Assembly: GCF_003390915.1 (NCBI RefSeq)
Contig: NZ_QMEM01000002.1
Location: 1-64,000, forward strand
From: Lewinella sp. IMCC34183
Lineage (GTDB): Bacteria > Bacteroidota > Bacteroidia > Chitinophagales > Saprospiraceae
DNA length: 64,000 nucleotides
Direction: 5' to 3'
Below, one piece after another: positions 54,034 through 63,697 of the stretch (position 1 is its first letter; each line of letters begins with the position of its first letter). A program made the position numbers and the translations under genes. The notes under the pieces are model-generated. The model worked only from the letters and a program-made list of their open reading frames with translations, had not been told where the DNA came from and did no database searches.

Positions 54034-55164
54034 TCAGTAACGAAAAACCTGCTCCGTCCACGTAGGCCCGCTGATGTAAAACATCCCGTTTTCGTAGCGG
54101 ACCGGCTCGATGCCCAGCTGGGGAAAAAGCTCCCACGATTCGAGGGTTTGGCTGTAAGGGTAGGGACGTTTATCGTACATGAAGTAGTGACAGGAATTCC
54201 AGAGCTGCCCGTCGGGGCCTTCGAAGAGGGCGTTGTGCCCGGTTTCCTGGTAGGGGTCTTCGGTGTCCTGAAACTCCAGGTCGGCGTAGCCGCCGCCGGC
54301 GGCCATGTCGGCGCGGTAGCCCTTCTTCCGGGTGCCGAAGATCGGTTCGGGGGAGACCAGCTCCCAGGGGCCCAGCGGCGTGGCCGACTTCAGCAGGCCG
54401 ACTTCGTAGCCGCGCGTCCAGGTGGAAAAGAACATGAAGTAGGTACCGTCCCGCCTGATCACGAAGGGACCTTCGATGCCGCCGACCATCCAGTCGGGCC
54501 AGCCGGGCTCGTCCTTGTCCAGGAACTTCTCGATGGGCGTGGTGAGCTGACCGGTAGCGAGATCGATCTTAGCCTGGAAGAGGCCTCCACCGCTGCAGTA
54601 GAGGTAGGTCTGTCCGTCCTCGTCCTCAAACAGGGTCGCATCGTTGTTGTACTGTGGGGTGAGGGGGCCGTTCACCAGTTCGTAGGGTCCGGCGACGTCG
54701 GCGGAGGAGAACAGCCAGATGCTGTGGGTGCTCATTCCCTTGGGGTCTTCCTCCGTCACTTTGCCGCTGTTGACCGTCAGGTAGTAGGTGCTCTGGATGA
54801 GGTGGATTTCGGGTGCCCAGAACCGCCCGTTGTACGGACTGTCCGCCGGCAAGGTACTGGCGTCGATCAGCCAGGAGTGGTGTTCCCAGTTCACCAGGTC
54901 GTCGGACACCAGCAGCCGCACCCCGGGATTCGGGCCGGTCCAGATCGGGTTCGACGTGCCCGTGCAGTACCACTTGTCGCCCGCCTTGATGATGAAGTGA
55001 TCCCGCATAGAAATGGCGGAATCGCGGGTGATGGGATTGGTATAGCGGAACTCGTGTTCCAGCTTCTCCTGCTCCCTTGTGTCCTGCCACGGATTGATCT
55101 GGGCGTATCCGGTAGCGGAGAGGGTGCAGAAAACTAGAATTAGAAGCATCTTTTGGAGAGTCAT
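54034..55164 (-). CDS. GH43-family glycoside hydrolase
   Basis: The 376-residue exported enzyme has a signal peptide (MLLILVFCTLSATGYAQ) and starts at ATG 55164, chosen over the upstream GTG/TTG frame. Five-blade propeller motifs are present: FRYTNPITRDSAISMRDHF (catalytic Asp region), GRFWAPEIHLI, GGIEGPFVIRRDGTYFMFFS (catalytic Glu), and GHNALFEGPDGQLWNSCHY late in the domain. Family members are beta-xylosidases, arabinofuranosidases or arabinanases. With the GH115 next door, a role in arabinoxylan side-chain or main-chain breakdown is likely (inference). Confidence 0.92.
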   Translation of the reverse strand: MTLQKMLLILVFCTLSATGYAQINPWQDTREQEKLEHEFRYTNPITRDSAISMRDHFIIKAGDKWYCTGTSNPIWTGPNPGVRLLVSDDLVNWEHHSWLIDASTLPADSPYNGRFWAPEIHLIQSTYYLTVNSGKVTEEDPKGMSTHSIWLFSSADVAGPYELVNGPLTPQYNNDATLFEDEDGQTYLYCSGGGLFQAKIDLATGQLTTPIEKFLDKDEPGWPDWMVGGIEGPFVIRRDGTYFMFFSTWTRGYEVGLLKSATPLGPWELVSPEPIFGTRKKGYRADMAAGGGYADLEFQDTEDPYQETGHNALFEGPDGQLWNSCHYFMYDKRPYPYSQTLESWELFPQLGIEPVRYENGMFYISGPTWTEQVFRY

Positions 55165-55609
55165 ACGTTCGTTCGGTAAGCGTGGGAGGGCGGTAGCTAG
55201 GAAAGGCCATAAGGTAACGAACCGGGCGGAACCAGGCCTGCGTGAAGCCTGGGCACGAGCGGGTGCAAAGGTTTTTCGCGTAAAATCGGATTCTGGTAAA
55301 CAGCGGGTCTGGGTAGCTACTCCTGCGTTTCGCACCGCCCACCCCTGGCCACGGAAGACACCAATCGATCCGGAAGCTCTTTAATAGGAAGGGCTGGAGC
55401 TACGGCCATCTGCTTAAAGCCAACCCGTATACTGTTCACTACGGCCGGTTGTAAGGAGATAGTAGCGCAGGAATTATTGCAGTGGAAGACTTCGTAAATT
55501 TGTAACATTACGCGACCTACCGGCCCGTCAGCGCCCTCCCCGCTACGGAAATCATAAGACCGGTCCCATACCTTAACTCATAATTATACAAAGCGATCAA
55601 CGCACCCCT
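55165..55609. other. Divergent promoter region of the GH43/GH115 pair
   Basis: A 445-bp gap between two divergent genes, so promoters for both are expected here. I see no clear operator. The open frames in it are not supported. Confidence 0.5.
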
Positions 55610-58192
55610 ATGTTTTCCATTCCTTATACCGTCCGGCTCGTCATACTGCTATGGCTATGCTGCAGCGGGGCGGTACGGTCCCAGACGGAATATCCGGTTC
55701 CGAACGATATCGTACTGGATGCTCCGGCAGGCGCGGCCGACTTTCCGATTGTATCTAGTAGCGGAGAGGTCGCGGCGATTGCCTACGATACGGCCGATCA
55801 TGCAGGAGTCGTCCGGGCGATCCACGATCTGCAGGTAGATATCGACCGGGTTACCGGTAAACGCCCGGCACTCGCGGAGAATAGGGCTTTGCCCGGGGTT
55901 AAAATAATTATCGGCACCCTGGGCGATAGCCGCGTGATCGATATGCTGACCACCGCCGGGATACTCGATACTAGCACTATTGCGGGGAAATGGGAGAGCT
56001 ACCTCATAGCTACCCTGTCTGACCCACTGGATACTTCACAGCTGTGTCTCGTCGTAGCTGGGAGCGACCGCCGGGGCACCATTTATGGCATCTACGAACT
56101 ATCGAGGCAACTTGGGGTATCGCCTTGGTACTGGTGGGCGGACGTGCCCTTCAAGGCCAGAACTGCGGCTTATGTACGGGCGGGCACCTACGTTTCTGAG
56201 GAACCAAAAGTGAAGTATCGCGGCATCTTCATTAACGACGAGGCACCTTGCTTTACGGGGTGGGCGCAGGAGAAATTCGGGGGTCTGAACAGCGAGATGT
56301 ACGCCCACGTCTTCGAGTTGCTACTCCGGCTGCGGGCCAACTACCTCTGGCCGGCCATGTGGGGCAAGGCCTTCAACGAGGACGACCCGGAAAACCCCCG
56401 CCTGGCCGACGAGTACGGTATCGTGATGGGGACCTCCCACCACGAGCCCATGATGCGTGCCCAACGTGAATGGGGCAATCACCGCAACGAATACGGGAAC
56501 GGCGAATGGAACTACCGCACCAACGAGGAGGGCCTCAAGGCCTTCTGGAAAGACGGCATGGAGCGGAATAAGAACTACGAGCAAGTGGTCACCATGGCCA
56601 TGCGAGGCGACGGCGACCTGCCCATGACCGACGAAGGCAGCGTGGAGGAGAATTTCCGTCTGCTCGAACGGATCTTCGACGATCAGCGCGCCATCATCGA
56701 AGAGGTGAGTGGCCAGCCAGCCGAGAAAACCCCGCAGATCTGGGCCCTGTACAGCGAGGTGCTGGACTTCTACGACCAGGGGATCGAGTTGCCGGACGAT
56801 ATCACGATCCTCTTCTGCGACGACAACTGGGGCGACATCCGCCGGCTGCCCGAACTCGGCGCGGCAGACCACCCCGGAGGTTACGGCATCTACTATCACG
56901 TCGATCTCCACGGGGCGCCACGCGCCTACCAATGGCTCAATATGACTCAGATCCCCCACATGTGGGAGCAATTGCAACTGACCTACGACTACGGGGTGGA
57001 GGAAGTCTGGATCCTCAACGTCGGCGATCTAAAGCCCAACGAATACCCCATGGACTTCTTCCTGGAGATGGCCTGGGATCCTACGGCCTTCAATGCCGAT
57101 AATCTGGATGAATACGCCGTTGCCTTCTGCGCCGAGAAGTTTGGGGAAGCCGGGGCGGATGAGGCCGCGGAAATCCTCAGCCTGCAGGGAAAATACGCCA
57201 GCCGGGTCACTGCGGAGATGCTCGACTACCGCACCTATAATCTCGCAAGCGGCGAATGGCTGCAAGTGAAAGATGCCTATCTCGCGCTGGAAACCCGCGC
57301 CATGCGGCAGTACTACGAACTTCCGGATCGCTACCGCGACACCTATATGCAGCTCATCCTGCATCCGGTACGCGCCATGGCCAACCTGTACGATATGTAC
57401 TACGCCCAGGCCATGAATAAAAAACTGGCCGCCGAGCTGGATCCGGAAGCGAACTACTGGGCCGACCGCGTGGAAGCTTGCTTCAACCGGGATGCCACCT
57501 TCACCCGCGACTACCATGAAAACGTTTCCGGCGGCAAGTGGAACCACATGATGGACCAGACCCACATCGGCTATACCTCGTGGGACGAACCCAAGGAGGG
57601 TAACATTATGCCGGTAACCACCCGCGTCGACTCGGCGGAAGTACGCCAGAGCGGCAGCTATGTGTTCCAGGAGGACGAAGGCGTGGTGGTCATGGAAGCC
57701 GATCACTACTATGCGGCCGTTTCCAGCGATGCGACGACCTGGACCTTGATTCCCGACCTGGGCCGTACCGGCTCGGCCGTGGCGCTGATGCCCTACACCG
57801 AAGCGACGGAGGGTGCCGCTATTACCTACCGGATGGAACTGGACGCCCCTTCTGATAGCATCAAGGTCTGGTTCTTCTTCGATAGCACCCTACCCTTCAA
57901 GGACGGCGGGCACCGCGTGGCCGCATCCTTCGCCGGCGTTGCGGAAAAAACGTGGAACATCAATCAGGACCTCAACTGGGCCAACAACTACGCGAAGATG
58001 TACCCGGCCGGTGCCGCGCGTATCATCGAGACACCGACCACCCTGGCCCTTCCCGCTTCTAGCGATGGAACTTACGCGCTAACCCTGCGTCCGCTGGACC
58101 CCGGTGTCGTCCTCTACAAGATCGTAATTGACAACGGTGGCTATGAGCGGTCGCGACTGAAAATGGACGAAACCGGCTACCGGAGGGAATAG
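55610..58192 (+). CDS. GH115-family alpha-glucuronidase
   Basis: The 860-residue exported enzyme has a signal peptide (VILLWLCCSGAVRSQ). It shows the GH115 pattern: VKYRGIFINDEAPCFTGWA, LRANYLWPAMWGKAFNEDD, GIVMGTSHHEPMMRAQREW, VTMAMRGDGDLPM and ILFCDDNWGDIRRLP, followed by helical and beta-sandwich C-terminal domains. The family removes 4-O-methyl-glucuronic acid side chains from xylan. Divergently transcribed with the GH43, it forms a small glucuronoxylan unit. The start is ATG 55610. Confidence 0.94.
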   Translation: MFSIPYTVRLVILLWLCCSGAVRSQTEYPVPNDIVLDAPAGAADFPIVSSSGEVAAIAYDTADHAGVVRAIHDLQVDIDRVTGKRPALAENRALPGVKIIIGTLGDSRVIDMLTTAGILDTSTIAGKWESYLIATLSDPLDTSQLCLVVAGSDRRGTIYGIYELSRQLGVSPWYWWADVPFKARTAAYVRAGTYVSEEPKVKYRGIFINDEAPCFTGWAQEKFGGLNSEMYAHVFELLLRLRANYLWPAMWGKAFNEDDPENPRLADEYGIVMGTSHHEPMMRAQREWGNHRNEYGNGEWNYRTNEEGLKAFWKDGMERNKNYEQVVTMAMRGDGDLPMTDEGSVEENFRLLERIFDDQRAIIEEVSGQPAEKTPQIWALYSEVLDFYDQGIELPDDITILFCDDNWGDIRRLPELGAADHPGGYGIYYHVDLHGAPRAYQWLNMTQIPHMWEQLQLTYDYGVEEVWILNVGDLKPNEYPMDFFLEMAWDPTAFNADNLDEYAVAFCAEKFGEAGADEAAEILSLQGKYASRVTAEMLDYRTYNLASGEWLQVKDAYLALETRAMRQYYELPDRYRDTYMQLILHPVRAMANLYDMYYAQAMNKKLAAELDPEANYWADRVEACFNRDATFTRDYHENVSGGKWNHMMDQTHIGYTSWDEPKEGNIMPVTTRVDSAEVRQSGSYVFQEDEGVVVMEADHYYAAVSSDATTWTLIPDLGRTGSAVALMPYTEATEGAAITYRMELDAPSDSIKVWFFFDSTLPFKDGGHRVAASFAGVAEKTWNINQDLNWANNYAKMYPAGAARIIETPTTLALPASSDGTYALTLRPLDPGVVLYKIVIDNGGYERSRLKMDETGYRRE

Positions 58193-58628: not shown

Positions 58629-61600
58629 TTATGCTTTCAGTCTAGTGTGCACTATTAAATCCAGCCACCCAAAGTAAACCTCAGTTTGAGGGCCAGTAAG
58701 CTGGTTAGCCTCACGACTTACGTCCAGGATGATTTCAAAAACCGACGGATCAAACCGATCACTATTTATGTTAACGAGCCCTTCCAACCGTTGAAAAACT
58801 TGAAGAATGGCTCCTGCATTTTCCATAAAGTCTTCTGCGGGGAGATAGGAATAAGGGGGCTGCATCGCTTCCTCCACCCCAGCCATCATCGGCCCATGAA
58901 GTTCAAGAAACTCGTTGTAGTGCTCTCGAATGTCGAGATAAGTTTTTTTCAGTTCAAGCTCCGAAACCATCCTGCCGGTAGCGTCCTCCGTTACTAGTTC
59001 TGAGAACTGCCCAAGATACTCCAACATCATCCGGATAACCTGGAACAGTTCATTATATCGCTCTACCTGATCAAATTCCGGGTGGTCATCAGCCGCAAAG
59101 TCGAGGGAAAGCTCATCCGTAATCTCCGTAGTTACGGGTACGAAATTAACAATGGATGGTATACCTTCATCCCGGTCTATAATATCAAATAGTGAGAGCT
59201 TAATCGCCTGCCGACGAATTAGATAATCATCGTACAGTGGTAGTATCCACACGTTTTTGACTCGCTCATCCAGTATGATCCGTCTAAAACTATAAAATGG
59301 TGCAGAACCTAGACTCACCTTCAGCAGAGCATGAGCCTTCTTCCAACAGTTCAGCATCTGCTGGATACCATCAACATAGAATAGCAGATACCAGTCACCG
59401 CCAACATCTTCCGACGGAAAAACCTCGAAGTCTGTACACCCCTCATCGGCTAGGAAGCCATTGAGCTTATCGTTCAGTTTCTTTTCAAAAGTCCGTACGA
59501 TCTTATCGCCCCTTTTTTCTGTAATTCTGTCCAAATCCGCTAACTTCTGAACTGAATGATCAATAATATATGCCCAGGAAAACAACATTTTCTCTAGGAG
59601 AGCAGAAAAGTGATCTAAACCCTTCATTGCAGACTCAGACAATTGGTCACCGGCTAACTCCAGCAGCGCCTCTTTGTACGCCGGGAATTTTCCGTATGCT
59701 TCCGCGAGGCTCATCTTAGATGATCGCAGATTACCCCGTGCGTAACCCGCGTCCTTCAACTGCTCCTCTTTCTCTCGCCAATTATCTTCTGTCCATTCCT
59801 TACTTACCTCTTTCAACCATAAGCTGATACAGGCCCGCTCGAAGAACCACCACATTTCTTGATGAAAATCCTTGATCGCCTTGACTCTAGGAGACAGCGT
59901 AGGATCCAGCAACTGTAAAAGAGGAATTCCGTGAAAGATATCCTTTATCTTTTCCTCCGTGATCTCAGCGTAAAAGCCCCAAGAATCAACCGCCGGTCTA
60001 GGAAGAATAAAATGAGTGTCCGGGCGGAAGGCAGGAACCATTCGAAACCCATTAGTCAGATCTCCCTTCTTCATTTTCTTTTGTAAGCCATTCGACAAAC
60101 TCCGTAGAGAACCGGCCATTGACTTCTGATCTTCAAGCAAGTGTTGTAATAAGCTAGGCCAATCAGCGTGTCGCTTCTCATACTTTACCAAGTTGAAAAA
60201 TATTTGCTTAGCGTCCGTCAACCATGGCAAGGGCAGGTTTTCCGCTTTGATGTTCTTCAAGCTTTCGTCGTGCGGCAGTGGAATCGCGCTGAATCTATGT
60301 CCGTATCCCTGAGTACTATAGAGCTCTCGGAAGGGTACGGCTTTTCGAATTAACCGCAGCAATTGTATAGTCTTGCCGTGAAAGCCCGCCCCAAAGACTT
60401 CACTCTCGCCTTTGAGATCAAAGATGAAGTGTAGCTTAATCTGCTCTCCATCATCTTCGATATTGACAACTTTCCCGTATGCCTGAAACTCTCGCATAAA
60501 TCCTGGGAGTAGTACCTGAGCAGCCCCTTGCGCCTCAGTGGAACCGTACTGCAAACCCAGGAGCAAATCAGCGGTCGCCTCTCTATCGCTTTTCTCTGGC
60601 CGCATTTCCTTAAGTACTGCGAAGAGTTTGTCGGAAAACGACCGCTCTATACTTTGCTTACTATTCCAAAAGAGTACGTATCCAAATCCAGCAGTCTCTG
60701 CCGCCACCTGATGATCGATAGTTTCTGGAAATGAACAATTACAAAGCCATTCATCTGCGAAGCGGTAAAAACTGTCTATCGGAGTAAACCTCTCCAAAAT
60801 TTTCTCCAAGCGTGCGAACCGCTCCGGTTTCCATACCTTCACCACTACCGACAAATCAACGTTTGGCGCCATCAGTTTCATAAGAGCGAAATCCGTCCCC
60901 ATCGGAAACTCTTGCCGAAGACGGACAAGGTGCTCATCATTCTCCGTCAAGTATGCCCGGACCCCGCACCATACCAACGCTCGATGCATCTCCCTACAAG
61001 TTTTCCAGCGGCGCGGACGCAGGTGCAAAGTAGAAGGCATAACAGTCTCGTCCCACCCAAAATGATAGCCATACTGTAAAATGTAATTTCCCCAGTCCTC
61101 TTCCACAACCAGCAGCTGACAAAAAGCAAATGCTTCTTGCGCCGGTGCAACAACCGGATCACACAACAACTCCGCCATAATCCTGGCCCGTACGGGGTGA
61201 AGCGCCTCTAAATAAGCACCACCCTCCCCCTCTCGTAAAAGATACTCCTCTTGAAAGTAACGAAGCGCACGCTGCGGATTGCGTAAAGGGACAGCTTCAA
61301 GTAGTTGTCGCAAGTCCAGCCGACAATCATACGCCCCCGCAACAGCGACCAACCGTAATAACTTTACCTCATTATCATCTCCCTCGGTAACGACCCGCTC
61401 CTGAATACGTTGCAACTGATTGCTCAATCGCTCCCGTAGCTTCTCACCCTTTCGCAACAAAAACATAAACTCCAGCAGTGGCCCCGCTCCCCCAAACTGC
61501 GACCACGCATCTGTAAAATTTAGAAAGTGAAGAATTGGAGTTCGTGACTCTAGGGCCGCAAACAATTGAATCGCTTCGGTTTGGGTAAACGATAGACTAA

Positions 61601-62732
61601 CGTCCGCTGCAGAAAAATACTCTCCTACCCCACCTGCTCGGTTCAAGTCTTCCTCTCTGATCGTCACCAACACATGGCAATATTCCGTTTCATTCAGTTG
61701 CCGACATAAATTAACCCAGTGTGTAGTTCCCGGTGCTACATCAACTAGCATCAGAAAAGGAGTTGCAAACGGTCGACTTAATGCCTTCGCCGCCCGAGCA
61801 ATATCTAGGACACGATTAGCTCCCGCAGCACTAGAAATTTCAAAGGCATAGCCCTTAGGATACCTTTCATATGCATACCGATAAGCCAGAGTGCTCTTGC
61901 CCTGCCCCGATGCTCCGTGAACGATAACGATCTTGTCCTGATGAAAAGCTTCATCTAACTCTGCCACTTTCTCTGGTCGAACTACATCTAAGCCAGACTC
62001 AATATGACTATACTTCGCAGCTATACCAGACTGAAACTCATCTTTCTCTTTCTCACCAATCGTTACTGATGAATTCCCCAGGGGAAGGATGGATGCCCCA
62101 AACTCCTCCAAAAAGCTAACTCGCTCGTTGACAAACTGCCCAATACTCTCAACTTTACGTATCAAATCACCTTTTGTCGCCGATTTCTGGCGTTCCGCCA
62201 ATTGGTACATCCAGTACAAGAGCATATCTGTTGTTATAACAACATCCGCTCCTGCTATGCTTTCCGCGATAAAAATTTCAACCTGCTTGCGTAATTCTAT
62301 GGCTTGAACCTCAATGATCTCCAACTTACCTATGAACAAGTCCGCTTCGGAAGCGGCGAAAGCATAATCATTAATGAGTTTACCTCGTATGATCTTTGAC
62401 TCTTTACCCACTTTCAGGCCAAGTAACTCTTGCCCTAGCTCTCCCAGAACCACAAGCTTCAAGGAAATTTTTGGATCTTCCAGTAGCTGATCGATTGACC
62501 GGCGAACAAACCCCTTCCTTTTCCCTGGGGATAAATCAGATAATCGCAAAGGCTTTCCGTAATTCTTTACTTGAACTACTTCAGTAACCTTTTCCTCTAC
62601 CGAAACACTATAATCCTCAAACATTTCAGGATGTATTGCTTCATCATCTTCCGCCTGGAGAACCCGAAGTAAAGTGTACAGAAATTGAAGACGATAGCCA
62701 CGAAGGGCTGGAATCGGGCCGGAATTATTCAT
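58629..62732 (-). CDS. Avs-like STAND NTPase with N-terminal DUF4297/Cap4-like nuclease domain
   Basis: A 1,367-residue protein starting at ATG 62732 (MNNSGPIPALRGYRLQFLYT); a TTG nine codons upstream is the frame limit. Residues about 10-190 resemble the DUF4297/Cap4 type of PD-(D/E)xK nuclease: RGYRLQFLY, then FEDY (Asp40) and EVVQVKNYG (Gln54, Lys56). Residues about 255-420 form a STAND-type P-loop NTPase: Walker A VIVHGASGQGKSTLAYR (273-281), Walker B FLMLVD (326-331) and HVLVTIREEDLN. The rest, about 900 residues, is helical without a family I can name, as expected of an Avs sensor region. The layout nuclease, STAND, long C-terminus is that of Avs anti-phage proteins that recognise a phage protein. 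The base composition is clearly lower in G+C than the chromosome. It is downstream of the recombinase gene on the same strand. Confidence 0.8.
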   Translation of the reverse strand: MNNSGPIPALRGYRLQFLYTLLRVLQAEDDEAIHPEMFEDYSVSVEEKVTEVVQVKNYGKPLRLSDLSPGKRKGFVRRSIDQLLEDPKISLKLVVLGELGQELLGLKVGKESKIIRGKLINDYAFAASEADLFIGKLEIIEVQAIELRKQVEIFIAESIAGADVVITTDMLLYWMYQLAERQKSATKGDLIRKVESIGQFVNERVSFLEEFGASILPLGNSSVTIGEKEKDEFQSGIAAKYSHIESGLDVVRPEKVAELDEAFHQDKIVIVHGASGQGKSTLAYRYAYERYPKGYAFEISSAAGANRVLDIARAAKALSRPFATPFLMLVDVAPGTTHWVNLCRQLNETEYCHVLVTIREEDLNRAGGVGEYFSAADVSLSFTQTEAIQLFAALESRTPILHFLNFTDAWSQFGGAGPLLEFMFLLRKGEKLRERLSNQLQRIQERVVTEGDDNEVKLLRLVAVAGAYDCRLDLRQLLEAVPLRNPQRALRYFQEEYLLREGEGGAYLEALHPVRARIMAELLCDPVVAPAQEAFAFCQLLVVEEDWGNYILQYGYHFGWDETVMPSTLHLRPRRWKTCREMHRALVWCGVRAYLTENDEHLVRLRQEFPMGTDFALMKLMAPNVDLSVVVKVWKPERFARLEKILERFTPIDSFYRFADEWLCNCSFPETIDHQVAAETAGFGYVLFWNSKQSIERSFSDKLFAVLKEMRPEKSDREATADLLLGLQYGSTEAQGAAQVLLPGFMREFQAYGKVVNIEDDGEQIKLHFIFDLKGESEVFGAGFHGKTIQLLRLIRKAVPFRELYSTQGYGHRFSAIPLPHDESLKNIKAENLPLPWLTDAKQIFFNLVKYEKRHADWPSLLQHLLEDQKSMAGSLRSLSNGLQKKMKKGDLTNGFRMVPAFRPDTHFILPRPAVDSWGFYAEITEEKIKDIFHGIPLLQLLDPTLSPRVKAIKDFHQEMWWFFERACISLWLKEVSKEWTEDNWREKEEQLKDAGYARGNLRSSKMSLAEAYGKFPAYKEALLELAGDQLSESAMKGLDHFSALLEKMLFSWAYIIDHSVQKLADLDRITEKRGDKIVRTFEKKLNDKLNGFLADEGCTDFEVFPSEDVGGDWYLLFYVDGIQQMLNCWKKAHALLKVSLGSAPFYSFRRIILDERVKNVWILPLYDDYLIRRQAIKLSLFDIIDRDEGIPSIVNFVPVTTEITDELSLDFAADDHPEFDQVERYNELFQVIRMMLEYLGQFSELVTEDATGRMVSELELKKTYLDIREHYNEFLELHGPMMAGVEEAMQPPYSYLPAEDFMENAGAILQVFQRLEGLVNINSDRFDPSVFEIILDVSREANQLTGPQTEVYFGWLDLIVHTRLKA

Positions 62733-62946: not shown

Positions 62947-63540
62947 CTACAAGGATAAGTAAGCACTCGAAATCGTCTCCTGCGTCAGCCCAATGTACCG
63001 CCGCGTCACCCCAATATCCCGGTGCCCAAAGATGTGGGACAGCAGAATCAGTGCGTGCTCGCTCCGCCCGTTGTTCTCGTAGATGCGCCGCCCGAAAGTC
63101 TTACGTAGGGTGTGGGAGCTAGCGTTCTGCGAATCGATCCCGTAGGCGGCGAAGGCCTTCCGGATCCGCTTGTTGGCGGCCGTCACCGAAATCGCCTTCT
63201 CGCGATCGCCATCACTCCGCTGGTGAACGAAGACCAGGCCGGCGTGATCGGCGGAGATTTTCAACTGCCCCCCTACCCTCCTGGCCAGCTTCAGGAAGTT
63301 GCCGTGGACGTTGACCATTCTTTCTTTCCCGGTCTTACCTTCCTTGATGATGAACTGATCCGACTGGATCTGATCCCACCGGAGTTGGAGGATGTCCGAA
63401 ATCCGGAGGCCGAAGTAGATGCCGGCACCGATTAGCAGGGCGGTGTTGTAGCGGCGGTCGGCCATCAGGCCCTTGATGAGGGTATTGGCGTGCGTCCACC
63501 GGAGGGGGGCGGTGGCGCTCTTGCGTCGTGGTTTTGCCAT
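62947..63540 (-). CDS. Minimal tyrosine recombinase/integrase
   Basis: The 197-residue protein starts at ATG 63540 (MAKPRRKSAT); a TTG 31 codons upstream only extends through the repeat region. The catalytic set is visible: Arg46 (FGLRISD), Lys in EGKTGKE, His143 and Arg146 (SHTLRKTFG), His173 (FGHRDIG) and Tyr182 (RRYIGL). It lacks the core-binding N-terminal domain of full-length integrases (about 300-400 residues), leaving the catalytic domain with a short basic leader. Compact recombinases of this sort are found on mobile islands in Bacteroidota. It lies upstream of the STAND gene and is flanked by AGGTTACA inverted repeats. Confidence 0.9.
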   Translation of the reverse strand: MAKPRRKSATAPLRWTHANTLIKGLMADRRYNTALLIGAGIYFGLRISDILQLRWDQIQSDQFIIKEGKTGKERMVNVHGNFLKLARRVGGQLKISADHAGLVFVHQRSDGDREKAISVTAANKRIRKAFAAYGIDSQNASSHTLRKTFGRRIYENNGRSEHALILLSHIFGHRDIGVTRRYIGLTQETISSAYLSL

Positions 63541-63560
63541 GTTCTTAAGGTATGGCGGGG

Positions 63561-63697
63561 AGGTTACAAAAACCGCCCGTGACGCAGGTAAATGCAACCT
63601 AAAAACAAGACGACCGAACTTATTTTGGCTCAAATTCCTGAAAATCAGTTAAGTAAGCGATTTTTATAGGTTACACTTATACACAAAATGTAACCTA
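63561..63697. promoter_or_regulatory. Paired AGGTTACA inverted repeats upstream of the recombinase
   Basis: AGGTTACA occurs at 63561-63568 and 63668-63675. Inverted partners are TGCAACCT at 63593-63600 (one mismatch) and TGTAACCT at 63689-63696 (exact; with flanking bases a 9-bp arm pair TAGGTTACA/TGTAACCTA at 63667-63675 and 63689-63697, spacer 13). Two matching inverted pairs just before a recombinase gene suggest recombinase or regulator binding, or an attachment site. Confidence 0.65.

What the first reader, a model, noticed from the sequence alone, without database searches (positions are those of the whole stretch)
58629..62732. Candidate Avs-type anti-phage sensor with a DUF4297/Cap4-like nuclease
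The 1,367-residue protein has an N-terminal nuclease-like domain with D...QVK, a STAND P-loop (GASGQGKST), a Walker B strand, a sensor-like TIRE stretch and a very long helical C-terminus. That is the layout of Avs proteins, which bind a phage protein directly through the C-terminal part and fire the nuclease. The C-terminal 900 residues do not look like a family I know, so its target could be new. It stands alone, without cap or other defence genes nearby.
Basis: partly seen in the sequence, partly recalled or inferred. Interest (0 to 1): 0.82.

Follow-up and report, generated by a model that had tools for sequence, protein, structure and literature searches.

The report
Avs-like phage sensor with Cap4 nuclease
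This gene encodes a large one-protein bacterial alarm, probably against viruses, with a DNA-cutting head, an ATP-driven switch and a long tail unlike any solved protein found; some relatives keep the switch and tail but swap the head for other weapons, so it looks like an unnamed cousin of the known Avs defence proteins.

Summary
The 1,367-aa ORF at 58629-62732 (-) is real: a Cap4/DUF4297-type nuclease (D40...Q54-V-K56), a STAND ATPase with winged helix, and an ~830-residue C-terminus. The N-terminal model (pLDDT 89) matches SAMD9, Avs4, Avs5, LmuA and HerA-DUF4297 entries; the C-terminal model (pLDDT 86) has no PDB or viral-structure match at E <= 1e-3 and no Pfam family.

Sixty loci from many bacterial phyla and one archaeal MAG encode relatives. 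Three lines of evidence point to defence. The effector is exchanged in some relatives: trypsin with an upstream metallo-beta-lactamase gene (3 of 3 loci), or a short motif shared with an upstream TIR or helical gene (2 loci). Neighbours include Gabija, AbiE and restriction-modification genes; the closest relative (41%) follows GajAB. The gene is in 1 of 298 genomes of its order, in a low-GC stretch with a tyrosine recombinase.

No Avs model or Avs PDB chain matched by sequence, so I call it an unnamed Avs-like family: a new variant of a known kind. Trigger, nuclease activity and protection are untested, and this copy departs at two near-invariant C-terminal residues.

The parts
58629..62732 (-). 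Whole gene, 1367 aa plus stop: Cap4-type nuclease / STAND ATPase / C-terminal putative sensor
   Evidence: Open frame; 60 relatives in genome contigs, closest L052, 41% over residues 4-1362
62118..62732 (-). N-terminal nuclease-like domain, residues 1-205 (Cap4/DUF4297/LmuA group)
   Evidence: PADLOC LmuA 1.1e-11 over 2-192; Pfam Cap4_nuclease 0.033, below cut-off; family profile hits DUF4297 chain 9c1m_A at 5.3e-6
62613..62615 (-). Candidate catalytic D40
   Evidence: D in 52 of 52 aligned rows that carry the Cap4-type N-terminus
62565..62573 (-). Candidate catalytic Q54-V55-K56
   Evidence: Q54 and K56 in 52 of 52 such rows; on predicted strand 48-57
61113..62057 (-). STAND NTPase with winged-helix region, residues 226-540
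   Evidence: nSTAND_NTPase5 1e-6 and nSTAND3 4e-4, both below the curated cut-off; 44 of 44 family members scanned match both at E <= 0.01
61893..61916 (-). P-loop GASGQGKS, residues 273-280
   Evidence: K279 in 61 of 61 rows
61737..61751 (-). Walker B-like strand MLVDV, residues 328-332
   Evidence: D at 331 in 58 of 61 rows; Asn in L042 and L046, alignment shifted in P0004
61647..61664 (-). TIREED 357-362, sensor-1/'TTR'-like arginine (motif name recalled)
   Evidence: R359 and D362 in 61 of 61 rows
61188..61199 (-). HPVR 512-515 in the winged-helix region, possible counterpart of the NLR 'MHD' histidine (recalled; inference)
   Evidence: H512 and R515 in 61 of 61 rows
58632..61112 (-). C-terminal region, residues 541-1367, putative sensor
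   Evidence: Model m88d5ade68587 (residues 470-1367) pLDDT 86.3, pTM 0.81; no PDB or BFVD match at E <= 1e-3; no Pfam match for this protein
59943..60470 (-). Conserved part of the C-terminus, residues 755-930, with a small alpha/beta element
   Evidence: P800, G811, K826, P911, D916, G919 in 47-52 of 53 rows; strands
62947..63633 (-). Tyrosine recombinase directly upstream, same strand
   Evidence: Phage_integrase 6.1e-20

Best explanation
A single-protein, Avs-like antiviral alarm of an unnamed family. At rest the STAND module holds the protein off in a nucleotide-bound, closed state. The ~830-residue C-terminus recognises an infection product, most likely a phage protein. That opens the STAND module, which binds ATP and oligomerises. 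The N-terminal Cap4-type nuclease domains are brought together and cut double-stranded DNA, stopping the phage and probably the cell. Shown here by computation: the parts, their conservation, the exchangeable effector, the defence neighbourhoods of relatives and the patchy distribution. Inferred: phage trigger, oligomerisation, DNA cleavage, protection.
For: Fold: residues 1-600 modelled at pLDDT 89.1; PDB matches include SAMD9 (1.0e-9), Avs4 bound to portal (1.7e-8), EfAvs5 (7.2e-8), a chain of the HerA-DUF assembly (2.6e-6) and LmuA nuclease (5.1e-6). D40, Q54 and K56 in 52 of 52 Cap4-type rows; K279, R359 and D362 in 61 of 61. Effector exchange on a kept STAND and C-terminus: L059, L061 and L066 have a trypsin-like N-terminus (PADLOC trypsin-type LmuA 9.7e-28 and 1.1e-29 for L061 and L066; Pfam Trypsin_2 only 0.0096, below cut-off) with a metallo-beta-lactamase gene directly upstream in 3 of 3 (Lactamase_B 2.4e-5, above cut-off; Avs1a model 4.4e-34). 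This pairing was shown to work by proteolytic activation of the nuclease in Hachiman and AVAST and also occurs in Lamassu and DRT systems (PMC12799240, passages). In L051 and L036 the N-terminus is a short motif shared with the end of an upstream TIR gene (15 of 20 positions) or helical gene (16 of 30), 0 of 20,000 shuffles as good. Each type is one clade in the STAND tree (100/100 and 100/97); the motif clade lies inside cyanobacterial Cap4 rows, the trypsin clade joins five Cap4 rows of Bacillota (100/100). Neighbours: in two sets of 112 and 118 flanking ORFs, 352 and 460 PADLOC models rang at 1e-10, against 2 for 55 control ORFs of the window's contig; GajA and GajB in 3 ORFs each, AbiEi and AbiEii in 3 each. 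Closest relative L052 follows GajA (2.6e-201) and GajB (4.5e-177).
Against: No activity, binding or protection was measured. For the window's own protein the Cap4 and nSTAND Pfam scores are below the curated cut-offs. TM-scores of the fold matches are low (0.20-0.39 on the query for the first five) and residues 1-205 were not searched alone. The PADLOC ratio is indicative only: the library is redundant and the control is one contig of one genome. The gene itself has no defence neighbour among the ORFs scanned. It departs from two near-invariant C-terminal residues: N842 to K (N in 49 of 53 rows) and R869 to Q (R in 50 of 53), so its sensor may be altered or decaying. Interrupted copies exist among relatives (L021, L029, L044, L051).
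Confidence: 0.8

Rival explanations
1. STAND-regulated defence that senses DNA, plasmids or a disturbed host process rather than a phage protein (Lamassu senses DNA; recalled); the C-terminus would bind nucleic acid or a host factor.
For: The effector repertoire is one that PADLOC also files under Lamassu: one Cap4-type LmuA model in 27 of 44 members, trypsin-type LmuA 1.1e-29 and MBL-type LmuA 1.3e-80 in L066. Some C-terminal residues are very conserved (K826 52 of 53, R869 50 of 53), as a constant ligand would demand. Two relatives of similar length are on plasmids.
Against: The switch is a STAND ATPase, not the SMC ATPase of Lamassu (definition recalled). In 15 of 15 close pairs that I picked, both segments of residues 931-1367 are less alike than the STAND domain, by 10 points or more in 14, as expected for a sensor of a changing target. 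For P0001-L052: STAND 52%, C-terminal segments 45, 43, 35 and 27%; the nuclease domain, 38%, is also low.
Confidence: 0.12
2. A real but degenerate or silent cargo gene of a mobile island in this host.
For: GC 0.44-0.51 over the gene against 0.55-0.67 on both sides, a recombinase upstream and a recombinase fragment at contig 64383-64652, departure at two near-invariant C-terminal residues.
Against: 4.1-kb open frame with the nuclease and ATPase motif residues kept; sister L052 shares 41% over nearly the full length.
Confidence: 0.06
3. A STAND transcription regulator such as MalT (an entry of the maltose-system regulation structure is the fifth PDB match; which chain it is was not checked).
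For: 8bob_C at 1.9e-7.
Against: The N-terminus is nuclease-like and is exchanged for trypsin or a short motif in relatives; Pfam found no DNA-binding regulator domain in this protein.
Confidence: 0.02

Closest known systems
Avs3/Avs4 (AVAST types 3 and 4)
   Same: N-terminal nuclease, central STAND ATPase, long C-terminus in one protein; Avs4 is the second-best PDB match of residues 1-600. In Avs3, sensing drives nuclease dimerisation (PMC12198126, passages).
   Different: No Avs model in PADLOC and no Avs4 or Avs5 PDB chain matched by sequence at E <= 1; the C-terminal model has no PDB match at E <= 1e-3.
Avs5 (SIR2-STAND) and animal SAMD9
   Same: PaAvs5 is annotated nSTAND3 (PMC12931631, passages), a model that 44 of 44 members match here at E <= 0.01. 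SAMD9 and EfAvs5 are fold matches 1 and 3.
   Different: Nuclease instead of SIR2; C-terminus without a match to either.
Avs1 and the trypsin-MBL pair
   Same: Three relatives carry trypsin-STAND with the MBL gene upstream.
   Different: The window's gene has the Cap4-type nuclease in cis and no such partner gene.
LmuA of Lamassu; DUF4297 of HerA-DUF4297; Cap4 of CBASS
   Same: Same nuclease group at the N-terminus.
   Different: A STAND module in the place of the SMC, HerA or SAVED partner (partners recalled, HerA).
Bacterial amyloid signalling (Bell-NLR pairs) and the effector-associated-domain principle
   Same: Short motif at the STAND N-terminus repeated at the end of the upstream gene, in L051 and L036; described for Bell/NLR neighbours (PMC8086366, passages) and EADs (PMC8195603, passages).
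   Different: Seen only in cyanobacterial relatives, not in the window's gene. No BASS or EAD model was run, so the likeness is by eye.

Membership tests
Avs (AVAST types 1-5) | N-terminal effector, central STAND NTPase, C-terminal sensor-like region in one protein | tested here: met
Avs (AVAST types 1-5) | Sequence match to a described Avs type | tested here: not met
   No Avs model among PADLOC hits at E <= 1 for the protein or among the 12 families hit by 44 members (residues 1-600) at 1e-3; no Avs4/Avs5 PDB chain at E <= 1. That PADLOC holds models of all five types is recalled; only Avs1a was seen in an answer. Not filed as a member of Avs1-5
Avs (AVAST types 1-5) | C-terminal TPR-like repeats | tested here: inconclusive
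   Mostly helical model with two small alpha/beta elements; no TPR Pfam match, no Foldseek match at 1e-3
Avs (AVAST types 1-5) | Direct recognition of a phage protein, oligomerisation, protection | not testable with these tools
   Needs experiments
Cap4/DUF4297 nuclease | D...QxK active site in the restriction-endonuclease-like fold | tested here: met
   D40, Q54, K56 in 52 of 52 rows; family profile aligns D and QxK to DUF4297 9c1m_A. Pfam Cap4_nuclease in 18 of 44 members at 0.01, but below cut-off for this protein
Lamassu | LmuA effector with an SMC ATPase LmuB (recalled) | tested here: not met
   LmuA-type nuclease yes; no LmuB hit among the 55 flanking ORFs scanned
nSTAND_NTPase5 / nSTAND3 (Pfam) | Score above curated cut-off | tested here: not met
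   29.1 against 34 and 20.5 against 27.2 bits; E-values 1e-6 and 4e-4
CBASS Cap4 | SAVED sensor and a nucleotidyltransferase partner (recalled) | tested here: not met
   STAND where SAVED would be; no CBASS hit among the 55 flanking ORFs scanned

The most novel reading that the evidence does not exclude
A separate, phylum-crossing lineage of antiviral STAND sensors whose C-terminus is a new fold that reads a phage feature not read by Avs1-5. Its effector slot has been switched at least twice: to a protease that would fire a separate nuclease, and, in cyanobacteria, from a fused nuclease to an amyloid-like adaptor that recruits a separate TIR or pore-type effector. The window's protein, which departs at two near-invariant C-terminal residues, would have shifted target.
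Probability: 0.4. Interest if true: 0.75.

Novelty: new variant of a known kind. Interest (0 to 1): 0.58.

Why it matters
If right, the family gives a system in which one switch and one sensor drive a fused nuclease, a protease-nuclease pair or an adaptor-linked effector. That makes it possible to test by domain swap whether the STAND core alone decides when the effector fires. The C-terminus has no solved relative that was found, so its trigger could be a new entry in the list of phage features that bacteria read. The ATPase belongs to the broad group of Avs5 and resembles that of human SAMD9, so results may bear on that antiviral protein.

Tried and rejected
Single-protein scan of genome contigs found no relative; the four-row alignment A1 then found 60. 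Scans of viral contigs: none with A1, three with A8: L096, a full-length relative beside methyltransferase genes, and the distant L097 and L098. PDB sequence search with the single protein gave only P-loop proteins (UvrA). Fold search of the C-terminus gave nothing usable in PDB or BFVD. Flanking direct repeats that could be att sites: only 16-17-bp imperfect copies, taken as chance; no tRNA. MalT-like regulator and housekeeping gene considered and rejected (see rivals). The GH115 neighbour was searched in 25 relatives, but the region was not compared for an empty site, so insertion is inferred from GC, recombinase and distribution alone. Not done: fold search of residues 1-205 alone, BASS or EAD motif models, pdb_via (library absent).

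Rows dropped before counts: the 53-row full-length alignment leaves out 12 of 65; the 61-row alignment and tree leave out L065, L067, L068, L070 and hold one identical pair; A4 and A5 leave out the plasmid and phage-record rows; flank ORFs were chosen in 62 of 64 loci (L019 and L033 left out as near-copies; L025 has none) and 230 of the 250 chosen were scanned.
Full report
What is there. The frame 62732-58629 (-) is open for 1367 codons, about 1e-28 by chance at its composition. Residues 2-192 match a PADLOC LmuA model (1.1e-11) and residues 9-68 weakly Cap4_nuclease (0.033, below cut-off); residues 233-367 match nSTAND_NTPase5 (1e-6) and residues 258-310 nSTAND3 (4e-4), both below cut-off. 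The C-terminus of this protein matches no Pfam family at 0.01.

Structure. AlphaFold2 on 44 aligned rows gives residues 1-600 at pLDDT 89.1, pTM 0.77. Foldseek against PDB returns SAMD9 9zjs 1.0e-9, Avs4-portal 8dgf 1.7e-8, EfAvs5 9jap 7.2e-8, a maltose-system entry 8bob 1.9e-7, a HerA-DUF assembly chain 9c1m_G 2.6e-6 and LmuA 9hr5 5.1e-6; many AAA ATPases follow. TM-scores are low (0.20-0.39 on the query for the first five). A profile of the family aligns its E..D and QxK to DUF4297 9c1m_A at 5.3e-6. Residues 470-1367 are modelled at pLDDT 86.3, pTM 0.81 on 47 rows, mostly helical with two small alpha/beta elements. They have no match at E <= 1e-3 in 350,542 PDB chains or in BFVD. The second aligner, pdb_via, was absent.

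Family. Relatives of similar length were found first on plasmids of Pseudanabaena and Deinococcus, and a shorter one (1110 aa) in a gut record labelled Bacteriophage sp.. Their alignment found 60 loci in the collection of one genome per GTDB species, from Bacteroidota, Bacillota, Cyanobacteriota, Pseudomonadota, Thermodesulfobacteriota, Planctomycetota, Chloroflexota and others, and one 4.4-kb contig of an archaeal MAG, where binning error is possible. Of 61 rows aligned over the STAND region, 52 carry the Cap4-type N-terminus and all 52 keep E36, D40, Q54 and K56; K279, R359, D362, H512 and R515 are in 61 of 61; D331 in 58 of 61. Of the other nine, L021, L029 and L044 carry the nuclease part in another frame or before an in-frame stop, L032 lies at a contig end, and five have another N-terminus.

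Effector exchange. L059, L061 and L066 begin with a trypsin-like domain (PADLOC trypsin-type LmuA 9.7e-28 for L061 and 1.1e-29 for L066; Trypsin_2 0.0096 in L066, below cut-off). In 3 of 3 an MBL-fold gene lies directly upstream, which in L066 matches MBL-type LmuA 1.3e-80 and Avs1a 4.4e-34. Among all 489 flanking ORFs two further ones resemble this MBL protein by blastp, in L031 (1.8e-44, several kb away) and L053 (1.4e-7), both beside Cap4-type genes, so MBL genes are not confined to trypsin loci. Such protease-nuclease pairs work by proteolytic activation in Hachiman and AVAST (PMC12799240, passages). In cyanobacterial L051 and L036 the nuclease is replaced by a short motif that recurs at the end of the upstream gene: a TIR protein (TIR_2 2.2e-33) in L051, a 146-aa helical-looking protein without Pfam match in L036; identities 15 of 20 and 16 of 30, 0 of 20,000 shuffles as good. 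L051 is itself an interrupted copy. In the STAND tree the trypsin rows form one clade (100/100) joined to five Cap4 rows of Bacillota (100/100), and the two motif rows one clade (100/97) within cyanobacterial Cap4 rows; P0001 and L052 are sisters (100/99). The root is a midpoint, so the direction of change is inferred from Cap4 being commonest. The STAND-C-terminus unit is kept and the effector changes, as the Avs logic predicts.

Neighbourhood and distribution. In 62 loci 250 flanking ORFs were chosen and 230 scanned: 112 gave hits to 352 PADLOC models and 118 to 460 at 1e-10. The lists show only the 25 commonest models: GajA and GajB in 3 ORFs each, AbiEi and AbiEii in 3 each, one MBL-type LmuA model in 4, type I methyltransferase models in up to 4. 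At least two of those four MBL hits must be the partners of L059 and L061 themselves (inference). Blastp puts the Gabija pairs in L052, L046 and L053. The 55 control ORFs hit 2 models. L052 follows GajA and GajB; L007 follows a PtuAB-like pair (PDC-M62A/B). The gene is in 1 of 298 genomes of its order and 1 of 60 close relatives, its own in both; the family is in 4 of 386 genomes of the cyanobacterial phylum. In 395 genomes of its own phylum 3 match, itself and two only over the STAND part. Thirteen genomes with relatives hold one copy each.

Island. GC is 0.44-0.51 over the gene and stays low (0.42-0.54) to about 66 kb of the contig, against 0.55-0.67 outside. A tyrosine recombinase and a recombinase fragment (by eye) lie in it. 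I infer a mobile insertion; no tRNA and no convincing att repeats were found.

Sensor. In 15 of 15 close pairs that I picked, both segments of residues 931-1367 are less alike than the STAND domain, by 10 points or more in 14; for P0001-L052, 52% STAND against 45, 43, 35 and 27% along the C-terminus, with 38% in the nuclease domain. Yet 18 C-terminal positions are the same in at least 85% of 53 rows. P0001 differs from the consensus at four of these: I551 for L is conservative, N842 to K and R869 to Q are clear in the alignment, E1042 is poorly aligned. This may mean a shifted target or decay.

Mechanism and verdict. The best reading is an Avs-like sensor: C-terminal recognition, STAND opening and oligomerisation, nuclease firing. 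Parts, exchange and context are shown by computation; trigger, oligomer and cleavage are inferred from Avs3/4/5, HerA-DUF4297 and Lamassu. No Avs model or chain matched by sequence, so it is not filed there. Searches for a published name found none, in an open-licence library from which two main Avs papers are missing.

Noticed in passing
window 62947-63633 and L081 1884-2153 (contig 64383-64652): Tyrosine recombinase upstream of the gene and a recombinase-like fragment (by eye) further on, inside the same low-GC stretch.
   Followed up: partly
L001 (own genome, contig C52 about 484629-485090): A second, separate Cap4_nuclease protein (67.5 bits, above cut-off) elsewhere in the genome, 383-codon frame.
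   Followed up: no
P0001 residues 842 and 869 (window about 60126-60209): N to K and R to Q at positions that 49 and 50 of 53 rows keep; unexplained.
   Followed up: partly
L007 1882-4648: AAA ATPase plus partner gene (PDC-M62A/B, PtuAB-like) before the relative, in a record labelled Bacteriophage sp.; the contig may be a mobile defence island rather than a phage.
   Followed up: partly
L097 2117-6697: A 1526-aa protein (PDC-M54A hit; Mrr-like N-terminus and STAND-like part by eye) next to a distant Cap4-STAND relative: perhaps two alarms side by side.
   Followed up: no
L003, L004, L008, L069, L101: A more distant Cap4-STAND group (QLK/QVK motif); not analysed further.
   Followed up: no
L053 3693-9733: GajA-like and GajB-like genes and a 735-aa ORF with an MBL-like start directly before the Cap4-type relative.
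   Followed up: no
window 54034-58192: GH43 and GH115 hydrolase genes beside the island; two further GH115-like loci in the same genome.
   Followed up: no
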